Assembly (NCBI GenBank): GCA_963989385.1
Contig: OZ022500.1
Coordinates: forward strand, 24,690,460 to 24,754,459
DNA length: 64,000 bases
Reading direction: 5' to 3'
Source: Ctena decussata
Lineage: Eukaryota > Mollusca > Bivalvia > Lucinida > Lucinidae
Below are positions 6,462 to 46,273 of this stretch, in pieces. The notes below the pieces were generated by a model that saw nothing but the letters and a program-made list of their open reading frames with translations, was not told where the DNA came from and ran no database searches. Position numbers and translations under genes: made by a program. How positions within the stretch are numbered: the first letter of the stretch is position 1; each line of letters starts with the position of its first letter.

Positions 6462-6872
6462 TCATGTGCTCATGAAAATAACTGGTAGGACCACAGATAA
6501 CGACACAACGATAGTCACAAGATACACTGTGAAAAATATCCTGTCAAATATAAGCCCAACAGCTTTCCATTCCTTGGCTATCTTTTCCTTTTTGTCTTTA
6601 TCTTCTATCCTCTCTTTATATATAAAAAGAAAATCTCTTATTTCGGTCAATTTACTATCTATCTCTGCCCACTGAGGGTCTATCTCAATTTCATAATTCT
6701 TTCTGGATAACAACTCCGATGAGCCTTTCCAGTTTTTGGTCCATTTACTGTCGCCATTAACAAACCCCATCCCAGGAATAGCAGGAGGTATAAGTCTTTT
6801 CTTATCTGCCTCCAAAAACGGGCGAACTAAATTGTCCATACACAATATTCGAGCAAAGAATTGGAACATCAC
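6462..6872 (-). CDS. nAChR exon 7: cytoplasmic loop, TM4 and stop
   Basis: Residues 354-489 and a TGA stop at 6464-6462. Acceptor TTTTATAG. It starts [13 protein letters not shown], matching the post-TM3 amphipathic region of nAChRs, then a short variable loop of about 75 residues, a charged pre-TM4 helix ([21 protein letters not shown]) and TM4 with the conserved W...FDRIFF motif (Trp455, Asp463, Arg464). The protein ends three residues after the hydrophobic stretch. The loop is short compared with many nAChRs. Confidence 0.94.
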   Translation of the reverse strand: MMFQFFARILCMDNLVRPFLEADKKRLIPPAIPGMGFVNGDSKWTKNWKGSSELLSRKNYEIEIDPQWAEIDSKLTEIRDFLFIYKERIEDKDKKEKIAKEWKAVGLIFDRIFFTVYLVTIVVSLSVVLPVIFMST

Positions 6873-9800
6873 CTATAAAAAAAAGACCATTAAAATTTGT
6901 CAGACAAATACAAATTTTACACAAAAAACAAGTGTTCTGATATTTACGTCCTTACATAATTAGGGTAACTTAATTAAGTCACATTTTGTGGCAATACAAA
7001 CGCTGAAAATGCAATCTGTGACATATATCCTATAAATGTAATACATACCTGAAGAATCAGAGCAGCTAGGCGGAATTCAAGGAATTCTTGTCATTTTCTG
7101 GTTAGAAAGTTTAAGGTTACAGTAAGGCATCCTAGCATTTAGGTCATGCACTCAAAAATACTCTTCGACATCTCTATAACTTATTTAGCGAGTATTTAAA
7201 GCATGAGACTGTTGTGTGACGGCAACTATGTTTTAAAAGCTTATTATCAACGTAAATTTGATACCTTCAGAAATTCGACCCAAACCGGCAAATATATTAG
7301 GCAAATCAGTAATTACCATCAAACACGACAAACGTCATACATTGTTATCGCCGACTTCATTTAACAGCGGTAGTGCACCGACCGTCGTATTGTACTACAA
7401 CTGGCTTTATTTAACAACGGTAATACACCGACCGTCGTATTCTATTACCGCCGGCTTCATTTAACAGCGGTAATACACCGACAAACATCGTTTTCTTTAT
7501 CGCCGGCTTCATTAAGATTTTATTTTATTTAACAGCAGTATAGGTCGTTTGGAGGGAAAAATTTAATTTCTTTTTTTACCGAATAAATCATGAAACTGTG
7601 CATATATGAATCTATTACCCATACGAACTCAAGCAAGGAAATTCAGATTTGTTTTACTTTTATATAAAAGTTACTTTATTAATTGTTACCGTTGTCCTTC
7701 TCAATTTTGTGCCATTCTAACATAGGAGGTAACCATGAAGGTACAACAGCTATGTTGCTTCTATAGTTACTATATTAATACTATTGTTCATTCACAAATT
7801 ACCACGTGGTCTGAAATGTGTTCATTCACTACCAGGTAAAAAAGGGGCTTTAGCAATAATTGGCCAATCACTTGAAAAGAGTTATCTTATATGTTTCTCC
7901 TTAATAGGGAGTAAATGCCCATATAAGGGATGCAAATTATTAGTCTGTACAACACTGACTGTCCCGAAAACTGCACCAACCAAGCATACAATCTCAAAGG
8001 TTAGGGACATTTTTTACATGTAATTGATCTGACAATTTTTTATTTACTAGTCAGAAAATTCTGAATTTCCTTGCCTGAGATAGTATGGGTAACAGATAAA
8101 GGTTTGCAAAGTTTCATGAAAATATACTGAGTAGTAAAAAATTGAATCAATTTTTTGCCCTCCATTTTTTCATCAACGACTTATAATCACTGACGCATAT
8201 TGCACTCTGTCGTGACGGTATTTGCCAATTTTTACCATTATGGACATGAGCTTTAAGGATACACGATGGATACTTACAGTTCTCAATAATTTTGGCACTG
8301 GTGCTCTCGCTCCATAAAACGACAAATTGACGACAAATACATTAAGGAATGTTGATAATGTGATAAGAATCATGTTGAGACAGTAGTATGTTCCTGAAAT
8401 ATATACAAGCACATACCTCTGATATGAAAGAATACTACACTTACAATGACAGCTTCAGATGAAACTAACTGAGTATATTTCCTGGTAAATATGTGTGTTT
8501 GTGTGGGTGTGCGTGTGCGTTTGTGTTTCTTTATTCATATCTTGAATGCATTTCACCGACCCTTGATAGAATCAAATCCTGTAAAGAAAAATGTTATTGA
8601 CATAGCTTGCCATTATGTCTAACCACATAGTTATTCACGAAATGAACCCAGAATATTGTGTCTCTAAGGCGCTGGTGATACCCATTCTTAACTTCTGTCT
8701 ATCACACATATTTTAGATGGTTTGAAACTGTGGAAGGAATTTAAAAACACTACTACTACCTTCCCTTTATTTACGGATAATTGTCTAAGCTCAAGATGTT
8801 GTCCGTTTATCAAAACTAATTTTACCTTCTGTCGCACGCACATCTTCAATAAGTCTCTAACATATTTGCAAAGTTTAAATCTGAGGAAAGTGTGGAAGAA
8901 GTTGGTTATACAAACAAATCACCCCATAATAGTAAATGTTGTACAAAATTGTCTAAGTTCAAAAGGTTATATTTTTGTTATATTTTTTGTTGACATCTAA
9001 AATGACATAGTCACATCTTGAGTATGTCTATAACATCTGTGCGCAGTTTCAACTGATAGGCAGATATCTACTGGAAAAATGTTATCTTACAAACTTGCCA
9101 AGAATCTAACTATTCAGAACTGATTTGTCATTCTGGCAATGCTGAACTAGTACTAAACTTACGAAGTCCAAAAAAACTTTTATTTTGTTTAAATATGTTC
9201 ACCACATGCATAGGTCGTTGTAGTATGTACCGATAACATCTGTGCAAAGGTGGAACTGATGGACTGAAAATTATGTGAGGAATTGATTATTCAAACTTGG
9301 TGACCTGTGTTAGTGAATAACCCCTTTAATTATGAGTACCGTGCCGTAATTTTGACAAAGAAGTGTGTTTATCTCCAAAACGTCACATGCACAGCCTCAA
9401 CACATTTTTGACATCTGTGAAAAGTTTCAAAATGATTCCTTGAAAACTGTAGGAAGAGATGATTATACATATGTTTTAGGTGCGACAGACGGACAGACAG
9501 ATGGACAGGGATAAAACATATACTTAGCAACAATAAAAACTTGACAGTCGCTATTTTTCATCCTACGGTAGTCGGGAAAAAGTGAGGCGTAAAAATTCTT
9601 TTAATTTCAGAAAAAGTACTCAGTTGGTAATATCATGGTCACACAAAAATCAAGATTCTTTAGAAACAGCAAGAGTGAGGCTATTGTAAACGTCCCAAGG
9701 ATACCTTGGCGTTTTCTATGCTCAAAACCAAACAATTACCAAATTTAAAATTGTTGAGGTCTGCTTAAATGATAAAATTTCTGTTGGCAATGCCTTTCCA

Positions 9801-12800
9801 TTATTAAATCCAATCTGAATGGACTTGTTAGCTAAATGTATGCCGATGCACGGTCGACGAGGTGGCCTGGAGGACCAGACGAAAAACCTTAGTCCACGCC
9901 ATTATGAAGTCAGAAATTGAGTTTCAGTGGAATTCTTAATAAACTTTAAAGTCTTTATGGGAGTTTAAGAAATGGCTTTCAAATAAATTTAGTAATAAAG
10001 ACATTGAGTTTGCAAGACAATTAAACAACTCCTCAAGGAAGTAACAAAAAAGACACGAGTTACGCAGTTATTGGTGGGTGGCACCTCTCTATCAACAAGG
10101 CCTTGATATTTGAAGAAAGGCTCTAGTATATCGGACAGCGAGAGATAAACTTGGTATTTATACTCAGAATGAATGAGCCTTGTGAGAAGCTTTCCCTTGT
10201 CAATATAGAGAAAACAATTAAAGTATGAGACAAGTGAATTGGATTATGCAATTCCTTTAATTTTACATATACATGTACATTGTAATAATAAATTCTTTAG
10301 ATAAAAAATGCCGACCATGTTTTATTATTGAATTCGATTGATAAAAAGACAACGGTAAAAGCCTAGTTGCCGTAAGACCAGTGACACTTAGAGTTCCACC
10401 ACATCTTTTGCTCGGCATATAATAGGCAAAGCCCATCTCTTTTTTTTGTGATCTTAATCCTAACTCGAATCTAAAAGTATTCATTTACGGCTAGGTTGAC
10501 AGATAGAGATAGTCGCCGGCTATATGAACGGCGATTAGAACACGCGAGCTTCTGTACCAAAAACAAGTGACTCTAACCACTTGACCATGCGCCTCCCCGG
10601 ATTGACATTATTGCTTAAATAATTCAATATCTTAAAATGTTTTAATATACTTAAGGACAAAAGTTCTGCACGGACGTTCCTTTAACATCCATGCAGATCA
10701 TTTGTCCTTAGGTATATATATTACACGGTCGGTATGTTTTTTTTTTCATTATATTTTACAACTCCTCGTAAAATCAAAAGGTTTAAGTACGGAAGGCTCA
10801 GCTGCAAAATAATCTCAGCAGCCGTTCGTGCCACAATGCTGATTAAGAGATGACGTACTGTTAATTACACTTTTTAGTCACTCATACATTTTTTCTTGAC
10901 TTCATAGGACAGCTTGATTGCAGGGCTGCCGCCATGCATTCCAAGTTATATTTGACTTGTATGTTCTTGTAAATTTTCATTTCTCTTAACATTTTACCAT
11001 CTTAAATTATATGATATTGTCAAATAATGAACAAACAAACAAAATAGTGTCTTCCGTTTTTACATCAAAAGTTTGGTTCATCAGTCCGGAATGCATAATA
11101 TTAAACAAAACAGAATACACCATTGCCTTAGACTAGTATTAAATTTCTGTGTTTCAATTGCGGTCTTGTTAGATTCAACATTATTTTACTTTCAGAGCAA
11201 GCCTAAGGTAGCCTACATACAGCTAACATGCATGTACAAGACTTGCTCCCGTTATCATGTATATTCATTTCAGAAGCTTGTTTCAATAGCAGCGAAAACA
11301 CAAATTCTGATCTATATGCTAAACTACACATCAAAAGCACAAAAGCTGCGATATCTATTTTTTCCTATTGGCCGCATGGTAAATGTAAAGTATTTGTTTG
11401 ACAATTAATTAAAATAAATTTCATCGTTTTATCAGTAAAATCTGGATCTCAAATACTAATATTAGTGATTAAACATCTGATGATTTAAAACTATGAATCC
11501 CGACTTCAATTCTCTGACCCTGTCGGCGATTATGTGTACAGGTTTACTGATCAACTAGGCGACTTTTTCATTTTCACATAATAAGAAAGAGATATACGGG
11601 TACACTGAGACTAAAATAGGACACTTACTTCGGGTAATTACACATAATTTTCATAATGATTCCACCAAAATTTAGAGAAAAGTCATGCTAAAACTTCATG
11701 CAAAGTGACTAACTTACCTAGGTTGGGTATATTACAAGACGCGATGCATATCGTCAACTCTTTTAGACATGTGAATTTCAAGACGCAGGAAGCCTGTCGG
11801 CAAATTTCCTAGAATAAATTTATTATTACAAGACGCAGGCGGTATATTGGCAACTTTCTTAGAATAATTGTTTTACAAGACGCATGAGGCTTATTAGCAA
11901 CTTACCTAGAATAGGTATATTACTAGACGCAGGAGGCATATTGGCTTCAAAAAGTAACAGTAACACAAAGAACGCCATGAAGATGCTCATGCCTGGAAAA
12001 AAGGTTAAACAGACTCTCACAACTCTTGATTTTGCGGCAAACATACACAAAATCTGAAAACATATCTTTATAGTGCGACTGAGAACTTTGTAATTTAAAG
12101 CTTATGTAGCTTCATGCACATTTGAAAAGAACGAAATACCGAAAGCTCCAAAAAGAACGTTTAGAAGAGTCATATATTTTAGGAACGACATAATAAATGC
12201 CAGCAGCATGTCCTAAAGCGCTGCTTATTGCAACTTAAATCATGTATGACTGGCGTCGCGTGAAAAACAACCTTTAGTCATGTGCGTAAAGTAAATATTA
12301 TAATCAGACTGTGCAGTCAAATGAACTGATCAGAGTATTCATGTTTCATTTTCAGATTGCCCGAGACAAGATATAAAGATGGTTTTGACAAAAAGGAGAA
12401 AATCTGATCAGACTGCGCAGAGAAGTTTGAGAGTTTTTCTTGTTGGCATATGCCAAAACGTATCTTCTGGTGCGACCCATATTTCAGTTCTTTAGACATA
12501 TTCGTTTTTTTTTTTTGTTTTTTTTTTGTTGCACAATAATAAGAGAGACAAACTTTCATCCCGAACAGTAGGATTATTTAGAGCTCTCAAACAAGAATTC
12601 TTTTTTGAAGCATCATCATCTCGAATTATGTATCGAAAAGCTATCTGATGGTAGTTTCTCATGCTGGTCATTACAACCAATTACTGTTGCTCAGTCGCAC
12701 TATATAGAACCAACTGAGATGCACAAAACGCCAAACACAACATGAATGTTTTCATGCCTGTTATACAAGTCCATCGCTGTACACTTCAAGTGAAACAGTT

Positions 12801-15800
12801 TCCTGCAAGAGACACTTACCTAATATTGGTACGTTACCAGAGGCAGTCGTATTGGCTTCAAAAATAAGTAGTAGCACAAAGAAGGCCATGAATACACTCA
12901 TGCCTGCAAGATAGTTCAATACATTTGAGCCACGTCATGGTTAAACCTGATGAGTGTTGATTGCTAGCGCCTTTGCATTGTTTGGACAGGGCAAACAAAG
13001 TTCACCCGAGAAATAACTGTTTTTAAGAGTCAATACAGTGAACTGCATGTGCCCTCACCAGACTGCACAATTGCACAGACTGCTTTGGACGTACCCACTT
13101 TTAGTTTCCCTACTTTCAAAACAGGTTTTGCCAGGTCTCGGCTCATTTTATACATGCGTAGGTATACAATGTCTAGTCACAAGACTTACCCATAATTGGC
13201 ATGTTATCAGAAGCAGGTGGCATATTGACCTCAAAAATTAATAGCAGCACAAAGAATGCCATGAAGATGCTCATACCTGTAATTTACACATTTGTATGAA
13301 CGTATCTAAGAATCAAGTTCTTTTCACTCTTTTTTTTCTCGTGGCATAACATCAGCGTTTTTGAATCGTGATAATGAATTTGTCGAATAACCCGAAAATC
13401 ATAAACGATACCCAAAGCTTCTCAGAAAACTAATAAAAGCAAATTAACTGTCGTGTAAATTGACATCGAGATAATAGTTTTAATTATTTATTTGATCAAA
13501 AACTACAACCAGATTTTATGAATAAATACAATTTAACAAAGTACTTATCATTATTTGGAATTTAAGCTAATGTTGATTTAAACTCATTTTGCGTTCCTAT
13601 TGTGCAACTTTGTTGCATATCAAATTAAAAATATCTCAGTAGAGCAACGTCTGTTTTGCCTTTGGCTGGGCAGATGTCTCTCTATATTCTTTAGTATATA
13701 TGTCCACCTGCAAAAGAATCCTAAAAATGAACAAATGTAAAATATTTTTTTCTATTTGCAGCAGGCTAAACTGCATAGCTATATCAGATACTTTGGCCAC
13801 CTTATGCAGATTTCATATTCAGTGTCAGACGTCTTATTTGCTGCTTTTAAAGTTAATTTGAAATTATAGTAGATTGAACTATGTCAACATTGTTTAATCG
13901 CAATAAATGTGCGTATTCTGCAGTTGGAAAGAATTATAACCTACAAACAAGGTACATATTCTACAACAGTCCGAGAAATAAAAAAGCAGTACCTCAATAT
14001 GTATCCTTAATATGTGCCATTAAGACAAAATACATGTACCAGCATTGATTATAATCTAAAATTAATCAAACTTGCAGGTTTTTGATAAAGAAAATATTTA
14101 GTAGTTTCACCTAAGTGTTCCGATTCCCAGCTAAATGCTTTAAAGAAATATGCCTTTTTTCACAGCGTAAACTTTAAAATACGGTTCATCTACAGACATC
14201 AATAGGTTATGAAGAATACCTACATAGCAATGAAATATTAAAGGAGTTTTCAAAGATTAAATTTCAATAAACATATCGACTATGACACTTGATTCATTTT
14301 GGTTCAAGTAGTATACCCTGCATCCGAGCAGTGACATCATTTTAGATAACTGGCGATTGGTTCGAAACATTTCCGCGGACAAAATAGTTACTACTCAGTA
14401 ATTATTTTATACAAATGCTAAAATAAGAAGAAAGCTTACACAAAAACATAAAAGACAAGGTATTTAAAATCATCTTAACAACTGTATGGTATTTATATTG
14501 TTTATACAAAGAAAATTGACATTTATGCACAACGGTAATGCATGTACATGTACATAGCGTGCACGTTCTATGTTACTGCAAGAGGAATATTTTTGTTAAA
14601 TCTGAACGAAACCTTTTAACTGTTTATGTCAATTATAAGCTTGAGCTATTATTAGCAGAATATACCATTACAAAGCCTCTTTAGAAAAGGGACACCGACA
14701 CCAAAGACTCTGATAAGACTGAGTGAATGCCTAGGCTGATAGGAGTCTTCGATGGGCGCATATGCCATTTTGTTCCTTTTGTCGTGTCATGGCTCAATTA
14801 TATGGATGGATACACCCCATGTCTTAGCCACTACATTTTAAGGGCGACAAAAGCAGAACAGTATTTTTTTTAAACTGAAACCGTTATGCAGTACATGGAT
14901 TATTTTTTGTAAAAGTTGTTCCGTGTAATAAGGGATATAACTGGTTTCAGATAGGCATGATGTACCTAGAGTGTATTCATACGCCTTAAAAATTCAAGAT
15001 TGATTTTATACTAAGTTACCAGAAATGTGTTAAGCATGTGTTTTACAGGAAGAATATACAGAAGGAAATAAATAATACATTGAAACTTAGCCGATAAAAT
15101 AATTGTGATTTCATGACTATTTCAATTTTGTAGTAATTTGCAAACAGATTTTAAGCATATTCTAGAAACTGGATATAACTGGTAGTTGCTTTATGCAAAG
15201 ATTTGTTGTGCCTTCAGCGGCAGTCACGTTTTGTTTCTAGTAGTTTGGTATAGCATAACACATGGTTTAAGTAAACTGCAATTGATTCGTTATTATACAG
15301 AATATCTAAAATTAGTGATTGCTTATTCCGTTTACACCAAGCGCTTCTTACAATGAGATATTGGCAAACCTGATCAGTGCTTGTTATGTTTGTGATAAAT
15401 TCAAGAACTTCTAGAAAAAAAATATAAAAAGCTGATAGCCCCTTCGGAAGACATAATTTAGGTCTGCAAAATTTAAAAAAAAACTAAAAATATTTTTCAG
15501 AGAAAAGCATATGTCCCACACCAGCCCATACTTATCCCCTCGAATCCCCCATAAGTGTGTTCTCAACCACTTGTGTTATTATCCTAAAAGTTAAAAACTT
15601 TGCTGTGATGATTAAATCTATCACGTTTGGTCTAGAGAGATGTCAATACATTCAAGAGCATTTAAAATCCTTCTGAGACCTTGCTAATGGAGTCAAGCTC
15701 ACCAAAATGCATCATCTCTTTTGCTTCTTATAGTTCTATATCCAGAAAAGTCTGATAACATTCCATCCCCTGGTTCAGGAAATATATTCTTAGTGAAAAT

Positions 15801-18800: not shown

Positions 18801-21800
18801 TATAACTAATTTGTGGCAAAACCGCATATGTATCTGCAGACGCGTTTGTCGGAAATCAGCTTTTTTTCACTTGAAAGTTACAAGCATTAGCACTGCCTGG
18901 CGAACTTCAAACTGCAATGCCGATATCAAAGTTTCAACAGTGGGTGGCAGGAATATATTTTGTCATCGTATCAAATTTTCATCTGATCTGGCGCGTTAGT
19001 TTGATTTTGATTTGTGTTTCCTTTGAAAATTTTGTTCATGTAATTGACGTTATTCTTACGTGCGGCGCGATGGCGACGGTGGCATACTTTGAACGTCTCT
19101 ATAACTGGAACGGGAAAAGATTCCAACTATATATCAATTCTGTTAATCAGAACTGAATTACAGTGTATCTTGATACATGTATAATTTTAATAACAATGCT
19201 ACGATAAAAATGGACACAGTGACATTACTTCTGGATCAACCCTTGTCATGTAAATCGTAAATTTACTCGGGCCTATTTCAAATAGAAACACCATCAGTAA
19301 CATGAAGTTCATTTGGACTTTTATAAACTGCTTTTCGAATTGAACGTAAAATTACATTATGTATAAATTATTATCGTTACAAGTAAATCTTGCTTTTAAG
19401 TTTAACATTTAGCTCATTAGCTAAACATGTAAGAATCTAATCTTATATACGAGTACAGTTGCTTTTGAATGGAATTGTCATTTTGTGTATACACTTACTA
19501 GTTATAAAGTCTGATGTCAGGCGTCCAAATTTTGTGAGATGGTATTCGAATTTCGTTGACTCCTTCATAGTCGGCCGGATTCCATTCAAGAAATTCGTCC
19601 TTCCAAAGCTTTATTAAATAAAAGAGGAAGCATGGTACATTACAACGATTAAGTCAACATTATCATCAGCGAGTTCCATAAAATATCGGGTTCCAGTTGT
19701 TCAAAAATAACGACGTCGTTAGTTAGTGAGTCGTTAAAATTTCAAACGTTTATATAAAACCAATATTTTTGTCGAGAAAATGTGCAAACGCTTCTCACGT
19801 TTTTCAACAAAAATATCAGAGTGTATTTGTATATAGAGTGGTAAAACACTTAACGAGTTGACCGCTTAACAAGCTCGATGCTTTGAACAACTGGACCTTG
19901 GTGGAAATACTTCTGAAGAACAGTTCCAGTGCAGCTTGAAATTGCACTATTGCACGATTACTTGGATGTCTTCTCATATTACATGACGTAGCTTTAAATA
20001 GCCATCTATGCCAGTAACGTGGGGCAAAAAGATGTCTTGTTGTTTTCAGAAATCAAATTTTAAGCATATCAAACACATTTTCTATCATTGAAAGCTCCTG
20101 GAAATGACATAAAAATATAAATTTTAAGGTTATTGAATTGATATTGTAGAAGAGCTAGTGTAAGAAAAAGAATCGGAGGAATACACCGTAGATGTGATTG
20201 TATAAGACATATGAATACTTACATAGTTTGTCCAAACGTTGATTTTGAAAACTTGGTCTTTTTCGCTGAGATCCATAATTTGAATAAGCTGCAACTGGAA
20301 TTTGACAGGGACTGCCTTACTGTAATTGAAGACTGGGCGTCCATAAGTGCCTCGTTTGTGATATGACGTCAGGAGGTTTGAAATAAGAACGCCCTCTGGG
20401 GATACATGGTCAGGAAAATGGCCGCCAATATTACCTGGAAAGAGAAGCAAAACAGACATAAATTTTAAATCGAAACTTTTAAAAAGACCCCAAAACGCTG
20501 TCAGGCAGATACTGTAAAAGATATGATCAAAAGCGAGCATGGCCTGTTCAATAGCGCATTACCGAAACCAGAGTTCCATGGACACTTTTTTAACATGACA
20601 GCGCTGTGTGACTCATCGTCGGTAACAAATTGAACAGTAATTAGTTAAAATAAATAAATGTGTTCCAAGCTTTATGGCAATAATGGCACCTTTGCTGGCG
20701 TTTGCTGAAAGATATAATGGTTGTACTGAAATGGTATTATGCGGGCTCTATTACTGCGCAAACCTCATATTACCAGTGAGTCACGCCTCAGGAAAATGCA
20801 TATAAGGATATGTACCAATGTTTAAGTCAAACGAGCCTCTGAAGTTTTGATGTCTATTTGTTTTTCTTTTTTTTTTCACAAATACCTCAGGATCCAAACC
20901 GTTGAGGCAAACAAGAAAGATTTTTATTTTATGGGCATGTGCGCCAAGCGAAGACAGCCGCCCAGTCTCACCAGGGTGTTCACTGCCCGCTCTATGGCTA
21001 GCTAAGAATCTAAGTTAGGTCTATGCGGACAGCGAAGACTCTAATCAGACTAGCGGATGCTCAGGCTGATCTGAGTCTTCGCTGGGCGCACGTGCCATTT
21101 TGTTGGATTTGTCGTATCGCGGCTCAATAAGGGTGTATGGCTTATTTAGGGAGAGCAACTACCATTTTCTTTTTTGCCGCCTCTCCCCAATCGTGGTCAA
21201 CTCTTAAGGGAAAAATTTGCTCATAGGGGAGGAATTTTTTTTCGAACTGAGCCCATTTTAAAAGAGCTACGTCGTCCAGGGAAGCTAACATGAGTTCCCA
21301 AAGTTGTTTCTTTTTATAAAACTGGCGAAAACAAAACAAAAAAAACAAACAACGCGACACGACAAAACCAACAATGTGGTTGTGCGCCCAGCGCAGACTC
21401 AGATCAGCCTGGGCATGCGCCCAGCCTGAACAGAGTCTTCACTGTCCGCATGGAGGTAGCTTAGACCCTTGGCTACCCTTTAAGCGCTTAGCGAAGGGTC
21501 TGATAAAACTGGGCGTATGCCCAGGCTGATCTGAGTCTGCGCTGGGCGCACAGCCACATTGTTGGTTTTGTCGTGTCGCGGCTCATATGAAGTTATACCC
21601 ACGCATCTTTAACAGAATCACGGCCGTGAACCTTCACCATAAGGCACTTTTTTCATGCCACGCTTTTTTTCTTTTCTTTTTTTTATTTTCCAAAACAGAC
21701 GAAATGCCATTATTCAATTAAGAACAGCCATTAAAAACTGTAATACCATTATTTTTGCAAACATAATTTTCATTGTTAAATTGGAGCTAAAACAATTTAT

Positions 21801-44600: not shown

Positions 44601-46273
44601 AGTAAATCAGTTAAAATTTTAATTGAAAGCGCGCTCTATGATTTAAACGAACAAAGCGGCTTGTTTAAGTTTGGGGCTGCAATCAAGGAACTTCGTTGTT
44701 CATTGTTTTTTTGTCTTTTTTCAGAAGTGACTGATTTGACAAGCACTTGAAGTATAAAGCTTGTAAAAGTTATGTAACTCAATTAGTCAGTGAATAACAG
44801 TGTCAAGTTCAACCCGTACATAAAATAGGGCTGTCTTGCTATTCCGGAAAAAGTATAATCGTTTTGACAAATGATGGTCCCAAATTCAATCAGAACATGT
44901 TAGATGTTCCGATCTTTGAATCGCTTTTAAAATCAGTTTCAGCATCTGCTTTTTCTTTCTTTGATGCTCGATAGAAGAAAAAAAAAGAAATATTTTTAAT
45001 GGTGGTGCTTATTTTTTTCCAGGTGTAAATGTAAGGACGGTCAGTAACAAATTTACTGGGAGGCTTTGCCGTTTTTTTGGGACATGACAGTTCTGGGCAT
45101 AGGTTTTGCCATGGCTCACGTGAAGGCTTTCTAGGATAACTATGAATCGTTGTTACCAAAAAAAAAAAAAAAAAAAAGGTTGCATTTGGTATCAAACGCG
45201 CTTTACCAATAATTTTATAGTAATTATACACTAAGACACGGCAGGACTAGCAGTAGCTACCCTAAAGTTACACAGCAAGTCGAAATGAGTCCGTTCATTT
45301 CTATATAAAAACACACATTATATTTAGGAATCATTTTGCAAAATTAATATACAGGAATAATACAGGAACACGGTTAATTCAATGTGAAAGTGTTATAAAC
45401 CCCCCCCCCCTTTTCGCACAACAGTCGAGAACATACACAAACAGAAAACAACCTGTAATATCAAAACAATCTGTACATGTAGCATGACTGATTTTTCTGT
45501 TTTAGATTAAAAGGTCTTAAGGTCGACAGTTTGTGCCACAATGTCTCCAATACTAGCCAGAAATAGAATGCACATGGTCTAGAAGCAAATGACATAATTA
45601 ACTTTGCCAGACGAGCTAGACACTCGGCCAGAAAGCAAAAAAACAAAAGACGTGATATACGTGCTCTTTGGAGTCAATACATAACTGGTTAACCGAATTC
45701 TGCTATTCAGAGACATTATGTTATGCAGCACAGGTCCATTCAGAAAGAAATGCCCCAGAAGTTAACAGAGATCAAAATTTTCTGATATTACTCTATTCTA
45801 TTTCCTCGGACATAACATTTTCCTGGAGATTCAACCTAGTATCATATACTTAAGGACAAAAGTTCTGCACGGATGTTAAATTAACATCCGTGCAAAACTT
45901 TTATCCTTAAGTATATATAAAGAATACAACATTCAATAGAAAGATTTTATTCTTCATTTTTGTCTGTTGGTGCCTCAAACTTCACAGTTTGTGAGTGAAC
46001 AGCAAATGTTCAAAACAAACTGCAGGGTGATCAAAGTGGTGGCCGACGTCTGCGTATACTGCATGGCTCGGCTCATCATAAGGGACCATGGGAAAAAAGT
46101 CCTACTAAAATCTCCACATGCTCTGCAGATCCAGACGTTACCAGATCCCATATTTCATTCAGACCTGTTAAAAGAAGGCATAATTTTTACTTACCATTAC
46201 AGCCGACGAATGTGAAGGTCGCTATGACTGCCAAGAGTAAAAGTTTTAATGACCAGTGAAACTGGCAGTCCAT
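6462..46273 (-). CDS. Nicotinic acetylcholine receptor alpha-type subunit, whole gene (7 coding segments, alternative TM2 exons)
   Basis: This is a ligand-gated ion-channel subunit of the Cys-loop family, acting in the plasma membrane as part of a pentamer that opens on acetylcholine binding. Join 46273-46195, 20434-20223, 19608-19499, 17701-17247, one TM2 exon (A, B or C), 8393-8278 and 6872-6462. Phases match at every junction, giving 489 residues with TM2 exon A or C and 488 with B. Visible features are a signal peptide (1 to about 25), loop D Trp99, loop A Tyr132, Cys-loop Cys167-Cys181 with 13 residues between, loop B Trp188, loop C Tyr231, Cys233-Cys234 and Tyr238, TM1 about 252-274 with its conserved Pro261, TM2 about 283-303, TM3 about 317-339, and TM4 about 462-486. 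Likely N-glycosylation sequons are at Asn63 and Asn154. The vicinal cysteines make it alpha-type. The TM1-TM2 linker lacks the usual Gly-Glu, so anion selectivity is inferred. The exact molluscan orthologue is not known to me. Confidence 0.93.
6873..8277 (-). other. nAChR intron between exons 7 and 6
   Basis: A 1405-bp intron with consensus ends. It contains a tandem repeat at 7340-7512 and otherwise low-complexity AT-rich DNA. No further exon is seen. Confidence 0.85.
7340..7512. repeat. Short tandem repeat, units of about 50-57 bp
   Basis: Three to four units built around CTTCATTTAACAGCGG, TAATACACCGACCGTCGTAT and CGCCGGCTTCATT. Confidence 0.8.
8278..8393 (-). CDS. nAChR exon 6: TM3
   Basis: Residues 316-353. 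Acceptor ATATTTCAG, donor GTAAGTAT. It reads [19 protein letters not shown] then [19 protein letters not shown], which is the family-typical third transmembrane helix followed by the conserved start of the cytoplasmic loop ([10 protein letters not shown]). It starts with the two bases that complete the Gly left by any of the three TM2 exons and ends in phase 0. Confidence 0.94.
8720..9530 (-). repeat. Degenerate tandem array with terminal microsatellite
   Basis: Recurring phrases (TATAACATCTGTGC, CAGTTTCAACTGATAG, TGGAAAAATGTTAT and variants) repeat at roughly 150-200 bp. The array ends at 9484-9512 with GACAGACGGACAGACAGATG. Read from the minus strand this is a (CTGT/CCGT)n tract followed by long tandem units, the same order as in the elements at 41.2 kb and 62.4 kb. 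Confidence 0.6.
10528..10598 (-). mobile_element. tRNA-like SINE head, degenerate
   Basis: On the minus strand, GGGGAGGCGCATGGTCAAGT followed by GGTTAGAGTC resembles an A box of tRNA-derived SINEs. GTGTTCTAATC sits where the B box (GGTTCGAATC) should be, with changes. It is unlikely to be a working tRNA gene. Confidence 0.5.
10646..10718. mobile_element. 72-bp palindromic MITE, copy 1
   Basis: TATACTTAAGGACAAAAGTT at the left pairs with the right end. Near-identical copies are at 45845-45917 and 60247-60316. Confidence 0.8.
11712..11905 (-). repeat. Tandem fragments of the TM2 exon 3' half and donor
   Basis: Four units of 45-50 bp start at about 11712, 11757, 11802 and 11852, and exon A's own end forms the fifth at 11900. 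Each unit contains a version of CAAGACGCAGGAGGCATATT and of the donor side (TTACCTAGAATA). The unit at 11712 keeps an intact CTTACC donor complement. They carry no usable acceptor and would not code. Confidence 0.75.
11906..11992 (-). CDS. nAChR TM2 exon, copy A (alternative)
   Basis: An 87-bp exon in phase 1, acceptor TTTTTTCCAG, donor GTAAGTTG. It encodes [17 protein letters not shown] and the linker [17 protein letters not shown]. Its pyrimidine tract is the strongest of the three copies. Reading past the donor gives [15 protein letters not shown] and then a stop, so the donor is needed. Its 3' half and donor are the last unit of a tandem array of about 47-bp pieces reaching down to 11712. 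Confidence 0.93.
11993..12819 (-). other. Intron between TM2 copies B and A, with a decayed exon copy and an inverted repeat
   Basis: An 827-bp spacer. Around 12717-12755 the minus strand reads GGCATGAAAACATTCATG then TTTGGCGTTTTGTGCATC, which resembles the start of a TM2 exon with an insertion. A perfect 15-bp inverted repeat (TATAGTGCGACTGAG) lies at 12069-12083 and 12690-12704. A divergent piece of the 235-bp palindrome family is at 12330-12460. Just upstream of copies A and B the flanks share GGTTAAAC, a trace of the duplication. Confidence 0.6.
12820..12903 (-). CDS. nAChR TM2 exon, copy B (alternative, one codon shorter)
   Basis: An 84-bp exon of 27 whole codons with the same phase 1 boundaries as copies A and C. 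Acceptor CTTGCAG, donor GTAAGTGT. It encodes [17 protein letters not shown] and the linker [16 protein letters not shown]. It is one codon shorter than the others: the Met-Pro-Pro of the TM2-TM3 linker is replaced by Thr-Thr, removing the proline pair. It also has Val at 7'. The exon is open, with intact splice sites. It lies 286 bp beyond copy C and 827 bp before copy A. Confidence 0.92.
12904..13189 (-). other. Short intron between TM2 copies C and B
   Basis: 286 bp, with no recognisable element. Such a short spacer may matter for whether both exons can be spliced together. Confidence 0.85.
13190..13276 (-). CDS. nAChR TM2 exon, copy C (alternative)
   Basis: An 87-bp exon of 28 whole codons, entering and leaving in phase 1. 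Acceptor TTACAG, donor GTAAGTCT. It begins [17 protein letters not shown], the pore-lining second transmembrane helix, followed by the linker [17 protein letters not shown]. Relative to copy A it differs at 17' (Ile), 20' (Val), and in the linker, where it has an extra Asp and two Met. It is the first copy met by the splicing machinery after exon 4, across a 3970-bp intron. Nothing in it is broken. Confidence 0.92.
14701..14796. mobile_element. 235-bp palindrome family, partial copy
   Basis: Matches the right half of the family (AGGCTGAT..GAGTCTTCG, GGGCGCATATGCCA, TTTGTCGTGTCATGGCTCA). Confidence 0.75.
15540..16830. repeat. Degenerate tandem array, units of about 140 bp
   Basis: TGACCTTGAAAATGGGGTCA followed by AGGTCACCAAAA recurs about every 140 bp (near 15835, 15960, 16090, 16230, 16370, 16510 and 16640). 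It ends in a GC-rich stretch ACGCCGACGCCCGGGATCC and a small hairpin at about 16800-16840. The unit shares phrases such as GGTCAAGGTCACC with many mollusc repeats. Confidence 0.75.
16970..17194. mobile_element. 235-bp palindromic MITE copy, close to exon 4 donor
   Basis: Starts GAGCCGCGACACTACAAAAC and ends TTTTGTCGTGTCGCTGCTCA. The two halves are near reverse complements, so the whole element can fold into a hairpin of about 110 bp. It ends 52 bp from the exon 4 donor. Confidence 0.85.
17247..17701 (-). CDS. nAChR exon 4: Cys-loop, loops B and C, TM1 and TM1-TM2 linker
   Basis: Residues 135-285 plus one base of Gly286. Acceptor ATTTTCAG, donor GTAGGTAT. In order it holds [11 protein letters not shown] (with an N-glycosylation sequon), the Cys-loop from Cys167 to Cys181 with the FPFD motif, FGSWTHDG (loop B Trp188), YACCPEVY (loop C, vicinal Cys233-Cys234, both tyrosines), and TM1 with LPCVLLTSL. 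The exon ends inside the start of TM2 (KMAL). The linker reads IPPESPTKM where cation-selective nAChRs have a Gly-Glu-Lys filter. A palindromic MITE begins only 52 bp past the donor (16970-17194). The frame continues beyond the donor into intron and MITE sequence, which is not coding. Confidence 0.95.
17702..19498 (-). other. nAChR intron between exons 4 and 3
   Basis: A 1797-bp intron, of which about 1 kb is a mariner-like element (18252-19245). The rest is unremarkable. Confidence 0.85.
18252..19245. mobile_element. Mariner-like element, decayed
   Basis: Both ends carry AGGGTTGATCCAGAAGTAAT extended by GTCACT in inverted orientation, a TIR of about 28 bp of the mariner type. The length of about 1 kb suits a shortened mariner. 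The frames inside (18508-18720, 18917-19156) are broken and I cannot see the DDD catalytic motifs, so it is non-autonomous. Confidence 0.7.
19499..19608 (-). CDS. nAChR exon 3: loop D and loop A of the acetylcholine site
   Basis: Residues 98-133 plus two bases of Tyr134. Acceptor AATAAAG, donor GTAAGTGT. It carries the family-typical [17 protein letters not shown] segment (loop D Trp99) and [10 protein letters not shown] (loop A, Tyr132). At 110 bp it matches the short, widely conserved nAChR exon that ends at the LYN motif. It was too short to stand out as an open frame and was found by joining phases between exons 2 and 4. Confidence 0.93.
19609..20222 (-). other. nAChR intron between exons 3 and 2
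   Basis: 614 bp of AT-rich DNA with no recognisable element. Confidence 0.85.
20223..20434 (-). CDS. nAChR exon 2: N-terminal helix and first beta strands
   Basis: Residues 28-97, acceptor CTTTCCAG and donor GTAAGTAT. The exon encodes the N-terminal alpha helix of the mature subunit ([19 protein letters not shown]), an Asn-Tyr-Ser glycosylation sequon at Asn63, and the strand ending in the NVW motif just before loop D. The reading frame runs open to about 20540 upstream and 20130 downstream. Those extensions lie outside the splice sites and do not resemble the family. It starts with the two bases that complete Gly27 from exon 1 and ends in phase 0. Confidence 0.92.
20931..21126. mobile_element. 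235-bp palindromic MITE copy (5' truncated)
   Basis: GGGCATGTGCGCCAAGCGAA to CGTATCGCGGCTCA. Its left terminal bases are replaced by unrelated sequence. Confidence 0.8.
21352..21585. mobile_element. 235-bp palindromic MITE copy
   Basis: ACGCGACACGACAAAACCAA to TTTGTCGTGTCGCGGCTCA, in full palindromic form, about 225 bp from the previous copy. Confidence 0.85.
22999..23222. mobile_element. Palindromic MITE (TTTATAAAACGACTTAAG family), copy 1
   Basis: The left half, from GGGGCCATATTTATAAAACG to GAGGAACAGTCTTTTTCAG, mirrors the right half, which ends CGTTTTATAAATACGGCTCC. A second copy is at 35033-35246. Confidence 0.85.
23260..23440. repeat. Dispersed repeat (CAACTCTTAAAGGAA family)
   Basis: The pattern GGGGACTAACTCTGCCATTT, then GGGAACAACTTTTAAAG, then an inverted partner ending AAGTCTTCCATG. 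Related copies sit at about 21150-21300, 27230-27360, 31080-31175, 34930-35000 and 53250-53410. Confidence 0.6.
23563..23612. repeat. (GA)n microsatellite
   Basis: About 25 GA dinucleotides. Confidence 0.97.
25319..25379. repeat. Perfect hairpin with 26-bp arms
   Basis: AAAAGAGTCATAGTTACCAA at the left is exactly mirrored at the right (TTGGTAACTATGACTCTTTT), around a 9-base loop. Confidence 0.9.
25726..26450. mobile_element. Outer foldback element interrupted by a nested insertion
   Basis: A 70-bp arm at 25726-25795 (CGTAGATTTTATGGTAGAAT, CCTGGCAACCAGCTGCCAGT) is repeated inverted at 26381-26450 with few changes. The element at 25912-26335 sits between the arms. Confidence 0.75.
25912..26335. 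mobile_element. Nested TIR element with TTA target duplication
   Basis: TIR GGGCGCGTTTACACG at the left and CGTGTAAACGCGCCC at the right, flanked on both sides by TTA. A 3-bp TTA/TAA duplication is typical of PIF/Harbinger-type MITEs. Internal phrases such as GTTTACACGGA, CTTTGTCACA and TCATAGAAAC repeat. No coding capacity. Confidence 0.8.
26555..27180. repeat. Dispersed 0.6-kb repeat, copy 1
   Basis: Shares with 32390-33050 the order ACTGCAG..AGCTATA, ACACGTC..AATTG/GTTG, AAAACAACAGACGCT, TTATCACACACGCTCC, GGATCGTCGGGACCAGTAGC and GATCCGATAAAGAAACTCGT. Confidence 0.75.
27448..27528. repeat. Palindrome
   Basis: AGGCACACAACCTTGAATCA at the left pairs with TGATTCATGGTTGTGTGCCC at the right, around ACGTCATGGCGTTG. 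Related wording recurs near 56150 and 58430-58520. Confidence 0.75.
28514..28996. mobile_element. TIR element of about 480 bp
   Basis: Left end CAAGGGTGATAACCTACGTC, with ATAGCGC following, matches the reverse complement of the right end (GACGTAGGTTGTTACCCCTG). No transposase. Confidence 0.75.
30218..30643. mobile_element. TIR MITE of about 425 bp
   Basis: TATACCGTATACGCGGTAAT at the left and GCGTATACGGTATA at the right, with sub-terminal TTTTCGCG/CGCGAAAA repeats. A small hairpin (TTAACCTGCGGC / GCCGCAGGTTAA) is inside at about 30416-30441. Confidence 0.8.
31350..31586. mobile_element. 235-bp palindromic MITE copy
   Basis: GAGCCGTCACACGACAAAAC to TCGTGTCGTGGCTCA, full length. Several reading frames over it on both strands are by-products. 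Confidence 0.85.
32390..33050. repeat. Dispersed 0.6-kb repeat, copy 2, with terminal hairpin
   Basis: Second copy of the repeat at 26555-27180. It ends in a clear hairpin at 32925-33020 (GATCCGATAAAGAAACTCGT and its complement). A 174-codon minus frame crosses it and is not a convincing gene. Confidence 0.75.
34168..34425. mobile_element. Putative MITE with imperfect TIRs
   Basis: GAGTGCACAAAGCATACGTA at the left resembles the reverse complement of the right end (TTTACGCCTGCTCTGTTCAC). Many CGTAAG/ACGCC motifs lie inside. Confidence 0.5.
34811..34950. repeat. Direct repeat of about 68 bp, two units
   Basis: ATGAATTCCTGCTTGCTTTT..GAAACGGGGTCTA is repeated as ATGAATTCCTACTTGCTTTT..GAAATGGGGTCTA. 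Confidence 0.85.
35033..35246. mobile_element. Palindromic MITE (TTTATAAAACGACTTAAG family), copy 2
   Basis: Same structure as 22999-23222 but the right end lacks about 18 bp (AAGTCGTTTTATAAATAC). An apparent 76-codon frame is a by-product. Confidence 0.85.
36080..36560. repeat. Dispersed repeat (TCTTTCCCA..GGTGGCAACC family)
   Basis: Contains GATCCCAAACCCTATCCCC, CAGCTCTTTCCCA and ACCTATTTTCTATTTTCATT. Related pieces with the same order occur at about 52085-52215 and 59045-59300. Confidence 0.55.
36610..40985. mobile_element. Large element of about 4.4 kb with long terminal inverted repeats
   Basis: The left arm (about 36640-36850) and right arm (about 40770-40985) match in inverted orientation. 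Shared marks are CCCCCCCCAGGGGGAATTTT, GTTAGCCCTCTG, GTGGGGCGTTAA against its complement, and TAAGGCCAT-like ends. The middle is AT-rich. One 103-codon plus frame at 38627-38938 ([16 protein letters not shown]) has no family I recognise, and no transposase motif is visible. It is non-autonomous or strongly decayed. Confidence 0.65.
41169..44450 (+). mobile_element. Array-bearing element: 5' hairpin, (CCGT)n, tandem units, 3' hairpin
   Basis: It opens with a 15-bp stem at 41169-41201 (AGCTCACCTGAGCAC / GTGCTCAAGGTGAGCT). A (CCGT)n tract at 41218-41268 follows, then three units of about 130-160 bp (41281-41720) and about 17-18 units of 145 bp (41721-44337). It closes with CTCAGGTGAG, inverse of the start, and a small hairpin AGGTCCATCATGGACCT before a T run. 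The layout resembles the Helitron-related or pearl elements with tandem cores described in bivalves. No protein is encoded. Confidence 0.8.
41721..44337. repeat. 145-bp tandem array with a five-unit higher-order pattern
   Basis: The anchor TAGGTCACTA occurs at 41841, 41986, 42131, 42276, 42420, 42565, 42710, 42855, 43000, 43145, 43290 (ATGTCACTA variant), 43435, 43580 and 43726, a spacing of 144-146 bp. Later units are more decayed (43854, 43998). The variant with CCATATACAATCTAGGCCAA falls just before 42420, 43145 and 43726, that is five and four units apart. Confidence 0.95.
45845..45917. mobile_element. 72-bp palindromic MITE, copy 2
   Basis: TATACTTAAGGACAAAAGTT, centre ATGTTAAATTAACAT, right end mirrored. 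About 280 bp past the exon 1 donor, inside intron 1. Confidence 0.85.

What the first reader, a model, noticed from the sequence alone, without database searches (positions are those of the whole stretch)
11906..13276. Three tandem, intact, same-phase TM2 exons in one nAChR gene
Copies C, B and A each have a good acceptor and donor, are open, begin and end in phase 1, and each fits between exon 4 and exon 6. All encode the same pore helix core (MS[IV]FMAFFVLLL). They differ at 7' (Ile/Val), 17' (Leu/Ile), 20' (Ala/Val) and strongly in the TM2-TM3 linker ([35 protein letters not shown]). The pore-facing 6', 9', 13' and 16' positions are the same in all three, so choice of exon would tune the outer end of the helix and the coupling of binding to gating, not the gate. 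The insect alpha6 nAChR gene is known to have alternative exons 8a/8b/8c for the TM2 region. Here the same solution appears in a mollusc gene of a different, anion-like type, which suggests convergence.
Basis: partly seen in the sequence, partly recalled or inferred. Interest (0 to 1): 0.92.

Follow-up and report, generated by a model that had tools for sequence, protein, structure and literature searches.

The report
Three swappable pore exons, clam receptor
A bivalve mollusc gene for an acetylcholine-gated channel carries three interchangeable copies of the exon that builds the channel pore, and one copy seen in a transcript-like sequence lacks a proline that related channels almost always keep, so splicing may retune how the channel opens.

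Summary
One nAChR-type gene on the minus strand (start codon 46273, stop 6462) has three tandem TM2 exons, A 13276-13190, B 12903-12820 and C 11992-11906. All are open, phase 1 to phase 1, with AG/GT borders. P0001, a transcript-like public protein, equals the spliced gene with exon B at 485 of 488 residues. A and C have no transcript evidence here. The arrangement is not confined to this genome: Crassostrea virginica isoforms X1 and X2 of the ortholog differ only in this exon, and a Pinctada model carries two TM2 exons in series. Two paralogues show one 87-nt phase-1 TM2 exon in the stretches fetched. So an inherited exon was duplicated in this gene lineage, probably more than once. Best reading: mutually exclusive exons that tune the M2 cap of a putatively anion-selective ACh receptor. 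Exclusivity, use of A and C, and anion selectivity are inferred.

The parts
46195..46273 (-). coding part of exon 1 (signal peptide, [26 protein letters not shown] + 1 nt); donor GTAAGT
   Evidence: matches the N-terminus of P0001 except residue 8 (S in genome, L in P0001)
20223..20434 (-). exon 2, ligand-binding domain
   Evidence: residues identical to P0001
19499..19608 (-). exon 3, ligand-binding domain
   Evidence: residues identical to P0001
17247..17701 (-). exon 4, Cys-loop, YACC, M1, SPTKMAL; ends phase 1, donor GTAGGT
   Evidence: two residues (226, 227) differ from P0001
13190..13276 (-). TM2 exon A, 87 nt, phase 1-1 (V20', P23')
   Evidence: acceptor TTACAG with 10 of 20 pyrimidines upstream, donor GTAAGTCT; no transcript seen
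12820..12903 (-). TM2 exon B, 84 nt, phase 1-1 (A20', T23', cap one residue shorter)
   Evidence: present in transcript-like protein P0001
11906..11992 (-). TM2 exon C, 87 nt, phase 1-1 (A20', P23'); closest of the three to other heterodont orthologs
   Evidence: identities 25/29 with Dreissena and with Mya (A 23/29 with each); most pyrimidine-rich acceptor of the three (14 of 20); no transcript seen
8278..8393 (-). exon 6, end of the M2-M3 linker and M3
6462..6872 (-). exon 7, intracellular loop, M4 and stop
11712..11945 (-). decayed tandem copies (unit about 47 nt) of the 3' half of exon C with its donor; the last copy keeps GTAAGTT at 11717
   Evidence: TRF 11779-11945, 3.5 copies, 77% matches; score 48 against a maximum of 30 in 50 shuffles

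Best explanation
The gene encodes an alpha-type (vicinal-Cys) nicotinic receptor subunit of the molluscan group with Pro-Ala or Pro-Thr before M2 (putatively chloride-selective). It makes three subunit isoforms by splicing one of three tandem TM2 exons between exon 4 and exon 6. The residues before M2 (exon 4) and 6', 9', 13' and 16' are the same in all three; the exon swaps 7', 17', 20' and the M2-cap/M2-M3 residues. Exon B removes the 23' proline and shortens the cap by one residue, so B-containing receptors should have a shifted gating equilibrium. Shown here: exon anatomy, use of B in one transcript-like sequence, and the same kind of exon swap annotated in an oyster ortholog. Inferred: use of A and C, strict exclusivity, chloride permeation and the effect on gating. 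Since all three exons are multiples of 3 with equal phase, including two would keep the frame, so exclusion must be enforced actively. The introns between copies (286 and 827 nt) look too long for steric hindrance, and the donors are GTAAGT or GTAGGT, which argues against U2/U12 incompatibility (both arguments from general knowledge). Competing RNA pairing or trans-acting repressors remain.
For: Intact borders, phases and frames. P0001 = e1-e2-e3-e4-B-e6-e7, 3 of 488 residues different. Pairwise NG86 dN 0.10-0.15 against dS 1.10-1.26; YN00 gives A-C 0.13 against 0.52, B-C 0.11 against 1.04 and no value for A-B. 2, 10 and 6 of 20000 neutral simulations show as few replacements without a stop (A-C, A-B, B-C). 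Of 6 comparisons of 200-nt flanks, the most alike (upstream B-C) was matched by 7 of 200 shuffles and the others by 27 to 147 of 200, so the resemblance is confined to the exons. C. virginica X1/X2 are identical outside TM2; Pinctada P0017 has two TM2 exons in series; a tree without TM2 puts these in one bivalve group with the window gene, 98/95. P at 23' in 114 of 116 homologues.
Against: Only exon B has transcript-like support in this species. Copy-by-copy tests are weak: replacement changes A 4 of 7 (P 0.15), B 5 of 9 (P 0.15), C 2 of 6 (P 0.02). A docking/selector pairing scan of parts of the introns was no better than shuffled controls. Acceptor A is pyrimidine-poor (10 of 20). The isoforms named in other species are gene models, and four models (P0022, P0026, P0037, P0116) skip TM2 altogether, so annotation error is possible. 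The motif before M2 is Pro-Thr, not Pro-Ala.
Confidence: 0.8

Rival explanations
1. Only B (with or without C) is a working exon; A, and perhaps C, are old copies that keep open frames by chance and are skipped.
For: B is the only copy seen in a transcript-like sequence. Acceptor A is weak. Per-copy constraint on A is not significant. In silkworm alpha6 only cDNAs with exon 8b and none with 8c were found (PMC1919356, passages).
Against: A and C have consensus donors, correct phases and no stops; A and C differ by 17 nt but only 5 residues (2 of 20000 neutral simulations); C is the copy most like the exons of other heterodont orthologs.
Confidence: 0.14
2. Two or three TM2 exons are spliced in series, giving a subunit with an extra helix.
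For: Frames permit it; Pinctada model P0017 shows two TM2 exons in series.
Against: P0001 has one, as do in all 115 of the 116 homologues in which the exon could be read. A subunit with an extra helix would break the four-helix topology (general knowledge). P0017 may be a predictor joining alternative exons.
Confidence: 0.03
3. Assembly artefact, or three separate genes.
For: None found beyond the repetition itself.
Against: Exons 4, 6 and 7 each match once in the window; the own-genome search lists one exon-6 match at this locus; copies differ by 17-20 nt and have unrelated flanks, unlike duplicated haplotypes.
Confidence: 0.02

Closest known systems
Insect nAChR alpha6 exon 8 cluster (8a/8b/8c)
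   Same: Three alternative exons that change TM2, thought to come from tandem duplication; 8c replaces a conserved TM2 glutamate (PMC2064938, PMC1919356, passages).
   Different: Different gene group: a molluscan gene with SPTK before M2 in place of GEK. Here the swap removes the 23' proline in one copy. Use of A and C is not shown. Insect exon sequences were not compared residue by residue here.
Molluscan and schistosome acetylcholine-gated chloride channels (Lymnaea anionic nAChRs, SmACC-1)
   Same: nAChR-like subunits with Pro in place of the M2-entry Glu motif; a Lymnaea nAChR protein, P0025, has SPAK and is 54% identical. Whether P0025 is one of the subunits recorded as anionic was not established.
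   Different: Pro-Thr in place of Pro-Ala in this gene and in 5 homologues beside P0001; no function measured.
Bivalve orthologs: Crassostrea virginica alpha-5-like X1/X2, Pinctada imbricata FSP39_006302
   Same: Same bivalve group in the tree; more than one TM2 exon in one gene.
   Different: Two variants seen in each, 29 and 28 residues; the short ones keep Pro at 23'. A, B and C group with heterodont exons (82/96), so the heterodont and oyster duplications are probably separate.

Membership tests
Cys-loop nicotinic receptor subunit | ligand-binding and transmembrane domains | tested here: met
   P0001: PF02931 203 bits, PF02932 77.9 bits; of the 50 PDB matches listed for its model, 48 are titled nAChR and the other two (8zrn, 8zrp) are nAChR entries
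Cys-loop nicotinic receptor subunit | two Cys separated by 13 residues | tested here: met
   [15 protein letters not shown] in exon 4
nAChR alpha-type subunit | vicinal cysteines in loop C | tested here: met
   KYACCPE; C233 C234 invariant in the 34-row alignment
Cys-loop receptor | proline at 23' of M2 | tested here: inconclusive
   met in A and C, not met in B; kept as a family member on the domains, the Cys-loop and the fold
ACh-gated chloride channel | Pro-Ala replacing the M2-entry Glu | tested here: inconclusive
   Glu absent and Pro present, but Thr follows Pro (SPTK). Among 122 homologues: PA 106, PS 9, PT 6, not in view 1
ACh-gated chloride channel | measured Cl- permeability | not testable with these tools
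   needs electrophysiology
Mutually exclusive exon cluster | adjacent homologous exons of like length, same phase, intact sites | tested here: met
Mutually exclusive exon cluster | transcripts with exactly one copy, each copy used | tested here: inconclusive
   B alone in P0001; A and C not seen; X1/X2 models in C. virginica
Mutually exclusive exon cluster by competing RNA pairing | docking site pairing with a selector at each copy | tested here: inconclusive
   best candidates lie within the range of 12 shuffled controls in each of three set-ups, which covered 1.4-kb docking stretches and 280 nt beside each exon
Insect alpha6 ortholog | nearest relatives are insect alpha6, with GEK before M2 | tested here: not met

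The most novel reading that the evidence does not exclude
Splicing switches the M2-cap proline itself: an inhibitory-type ACh receptor subunit is made with or without the 23' proline by exon choice. The same inherited 87-nt TM2 exon has been duplicated repeatedly, in insects, in heterodont bivalves and in oysters, as a preferred site for tuning channel gating.
Probability: 0.4. Interest if true: 0.78.

Novelty: new variant of a known kind. Interest (0 to 1): 0.64.

Why it matters
Alternative TM2 exons were known from insect alpha6. Finding them in a putatively anion-selective molluscan receptor, with a proline-less cap in the copy that appears in a transcript-like sequence, gives a natural swap at a position where mutations of the muscle receptor shift gating by a thousandfold or more (PMC2429975, passages). 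It also suggests that bivalves diversify cholinergic signalling by splicing, beside the large nAChR gene expansions already described in them (PMC6896357, passages). It is directly testable by cDNA sequencing and oocyte recording.

Tried and rejected
A fourth, degenerate TM2 copy at 12760-12741 was considered and rejected: score 20 against shuffle means of 18.0 (C as query) and 18.5 (B), maxima 26 and 28. Docking/selector pairing: three set-ups, none better than 12 shuffled controls each; only parts of the introns were scanned and only one genome was at hand, so this is weak evidence of absence. An exon-only tree gives weak resolution (2 of 15 inner branches well supported). Rfam and tRNA scans of the window were empty. 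Ten other ORFs of the window, out of the 111, gave no Pfam match. A count of further TM2 clusters over the whole genome could not be done because the genome search stayed unavailable. The species was not identified; 'heterodont bivalve' rests on the tree.

P0001 stands for a cluster of 5 member sequences of which only this one can be seen; others might carry A or C.

The AlphaFold model of P0001 (mean pLDDT 80.1) has low confidence around the M2 cap (block 301-310 mean 62), so it was not used to argue about the cap.

Literature searches bearing on tandem TM2 exons in molluscan nAChRs: their listings showed no paper whose title or abstract start describes them. The library holds open-licence PMC papers only, and van Nierop 2005 is not held. 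In PMC6896357, the bivalve nAChR survey, 'splic' occurs once, in the reference list.
Full report
What is there. The window lies in an unnamed animal genome of 1.66 Gb (G000:C3:24690460-24754459). On the minus strand one nicotinic-receptor gene runs from a start codon at 46273 to a stop codon at 6462. Its coding exons are e1 46273-46195, e2 20434-20223, e3 19608-19499, e4 17701-17247, e6 8393-8278 and e7 6872-6462. Between e4 and e6 lie three copies of the TM2 exon: A 13276-13190, B 12903-12820 and C 11992-11906. Introns: e4-A 3970, A-B 286, B-C 827 and C-e6 3512 nt. Splicing any single copy gives an open frame, 488 residues with B and one more with A or C.

Is it one gene of a known kind. P0001, a 488-residue protein from an unnamed source with a 2256-base contig, equals the spliced gene with exon B; residues 8, 226 and 227 differ from the genome. 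Its short contig and exact exon joins mark it as transcript-derived, by inference; the source label itself does not say so. Pfam finds PF02931 and PF02932, and a predicted model matches solved nAChR structures. The Cys-loop and the vicinal cysteines are present. Before M2 stands SPTK, with no glutamate; acetylcholine-gated chloride channels of Lymnaea and Schistosoma have Pro-Ala there (PMC4055736, passages). Among the 122 homologues fetched, 106 have Pro-Ala, 9 Pro-Ser and 6 Pro-Thr, and one lacks the region; the six with Pro-Thr are P0001, P0002, P0003, P0004, P0008 and P0087, bivalve where named. Anion selectivity is therefore likely but untested.

Are the copies more than chance. Pairwise they differ at 17-20 nucleotides and 5-7 residues; NG86 dN is 0.10-0.15 and dS 1.10-1.26, and YN00 gives a lower dS for A-C (0.52). 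Neutral simulation reaches so few replacements with no stop in 2 (A-C), 10 (A-B) and 6 (B-C) of 20000 runs. The flanking 200 nt show no clear similarity (6 comparisons; the closest, upstream B-C, was reached by 7 of 200 shuffles), so the duplications are old. Copy-specific changes alone are too few to prove constraint on each copy: A 4 replacements of 7 changes, B 5 of 9, C 2 of 6.

Relatives. Two paralogues in the same genome, at C3:97.81 Mb and C3:24.565 Mb, each show one TM2 exon in the stretches fetched, 87 nt, phase 1-1, AG/GT. For the first, the whole interval from exon 4 to exon 6 was in hand; for the second, exon 4 was not found in the 10 kb, so a further copy upstream is not excluded. 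The exon is thus an inherited unit. A tree made without TM2 joins the window gene with orthologs from Mya, Dreissena, Ruditapes, Mactra, scallops, mussels, oysters and Pinctada (20 rows, 98/95). In that group, C. virginica X1 and X2 (P0013, P0019) are identical except for TM2, 29 against 28 residues; Pinctada P0017 carries two TM2 exons in series; Ostrea X3, Pecten X3 and Argopecten X4 lack TM2. P0012, next to Mytilus in the tree, has a TM2 exon only 16/29 identical to that of Mytilus edulis although the proteins share 350 of 483 aligned residues, which hints at an alternative exon there too. An exon tree places A, B and C with the heterodont exons (82/96) and the short oyster exon with the second Pinctada exon and P0012, weakly (41/72). 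So at least two duplications in bivalves is the better reading, without proof.

What the swap does. Positions 6', 9', 13' and 16' are the same in A, B and C. B has Thr-Thr where A and C have Met-Pro-Pro, losing the 23' proline and one residue. Among 116 homologues in which the exon could be read (6 of 122 could not), 114 have Pro at 23'; the two others are P0001, which is exon B itself, and P0012, which has Pro at 24'. A mutational study of the muscle receptor' a completely conserved proline in all Cys-loop receptors, finds it among the most gating-sensitive residues of M2, and found Gly, Ala, Ser, Thr and Lys tolerated there (PMC2429975, abstract and passages). A B subunit should therefore work, but with another gating equilibrium. 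This is inference by homology.

How one copy is chosen. Double inclusion would keep the frame, so something must prevent it. The 286- and 827-nt spacings argue against steric hindrance and the donors (GTAAGT, GTAGGT) against U12 introns; both arguments rest on general knowledge. A scan for competing pairings was negative. Acceptors grow in pyrimidine content from A (10 of 20) to B (11) to C (14); other acceptors of the gene range from 11 to 17. C may be the default and A and B may need activation; this is conjecture, and the one transcript-like sequence seen uses B.

Compared with insects. In insect alpha6, exons 8a, 8b and 8c change TM2; RT-PCR in Tribolium found all six combinations of exon 3 and exon 8 (PMC2064938, passages), and the duplications were dated before the insect orders split (PMC1919356, passages). 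The bivalve gene is not its ortholog by motif or by the nearest relatives listed. The likeness is best read as parallel duplication of the same kind of exon.

Noticed in passing
11712-11945, minus strand: Just 3' of exon C stands a decayed tandem array of the exon's 3' half with its donor. The last unit keeps an intact GTAAGTT at 11717; its use would lengthen exon C by 188 nt and bring in a stop after 15 codons, so it could be a decoy or poison site. It also shows the local duplication process at work.
   Followed up: partly
12820-12903: Exon B lacks the 23' M2-cap proline that 114 of 116 homologues have.
   Followed up: yes
G000:C3:24565329-24565466 (L006, L011), about 125 kb from the window: A paralogous nAChR gene on the other strand with one TM2 exon seen; two stops in the longer match lie beyond its donor.
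   Followed up: partly
P0022, P0026, P0037, P0116: Gene models whose TM2 exon is skipped in frame, giving subunits with no pore helix: annotation errors or dominant-negative isoforms.
   Followed up: no
P0012: A mussel relative with an unusual TM2 exon (Thr at 23', Pro at 24'), possibly another alternative copy in mussels.
   Followed up: partly
9' position of A, B and C: The pore gate residue is Met, where the muscle receptor has Leu; among 116 homologues 9' is V 59, M 19, I 15, T 13, L 9, S 1.
   Followed up: no
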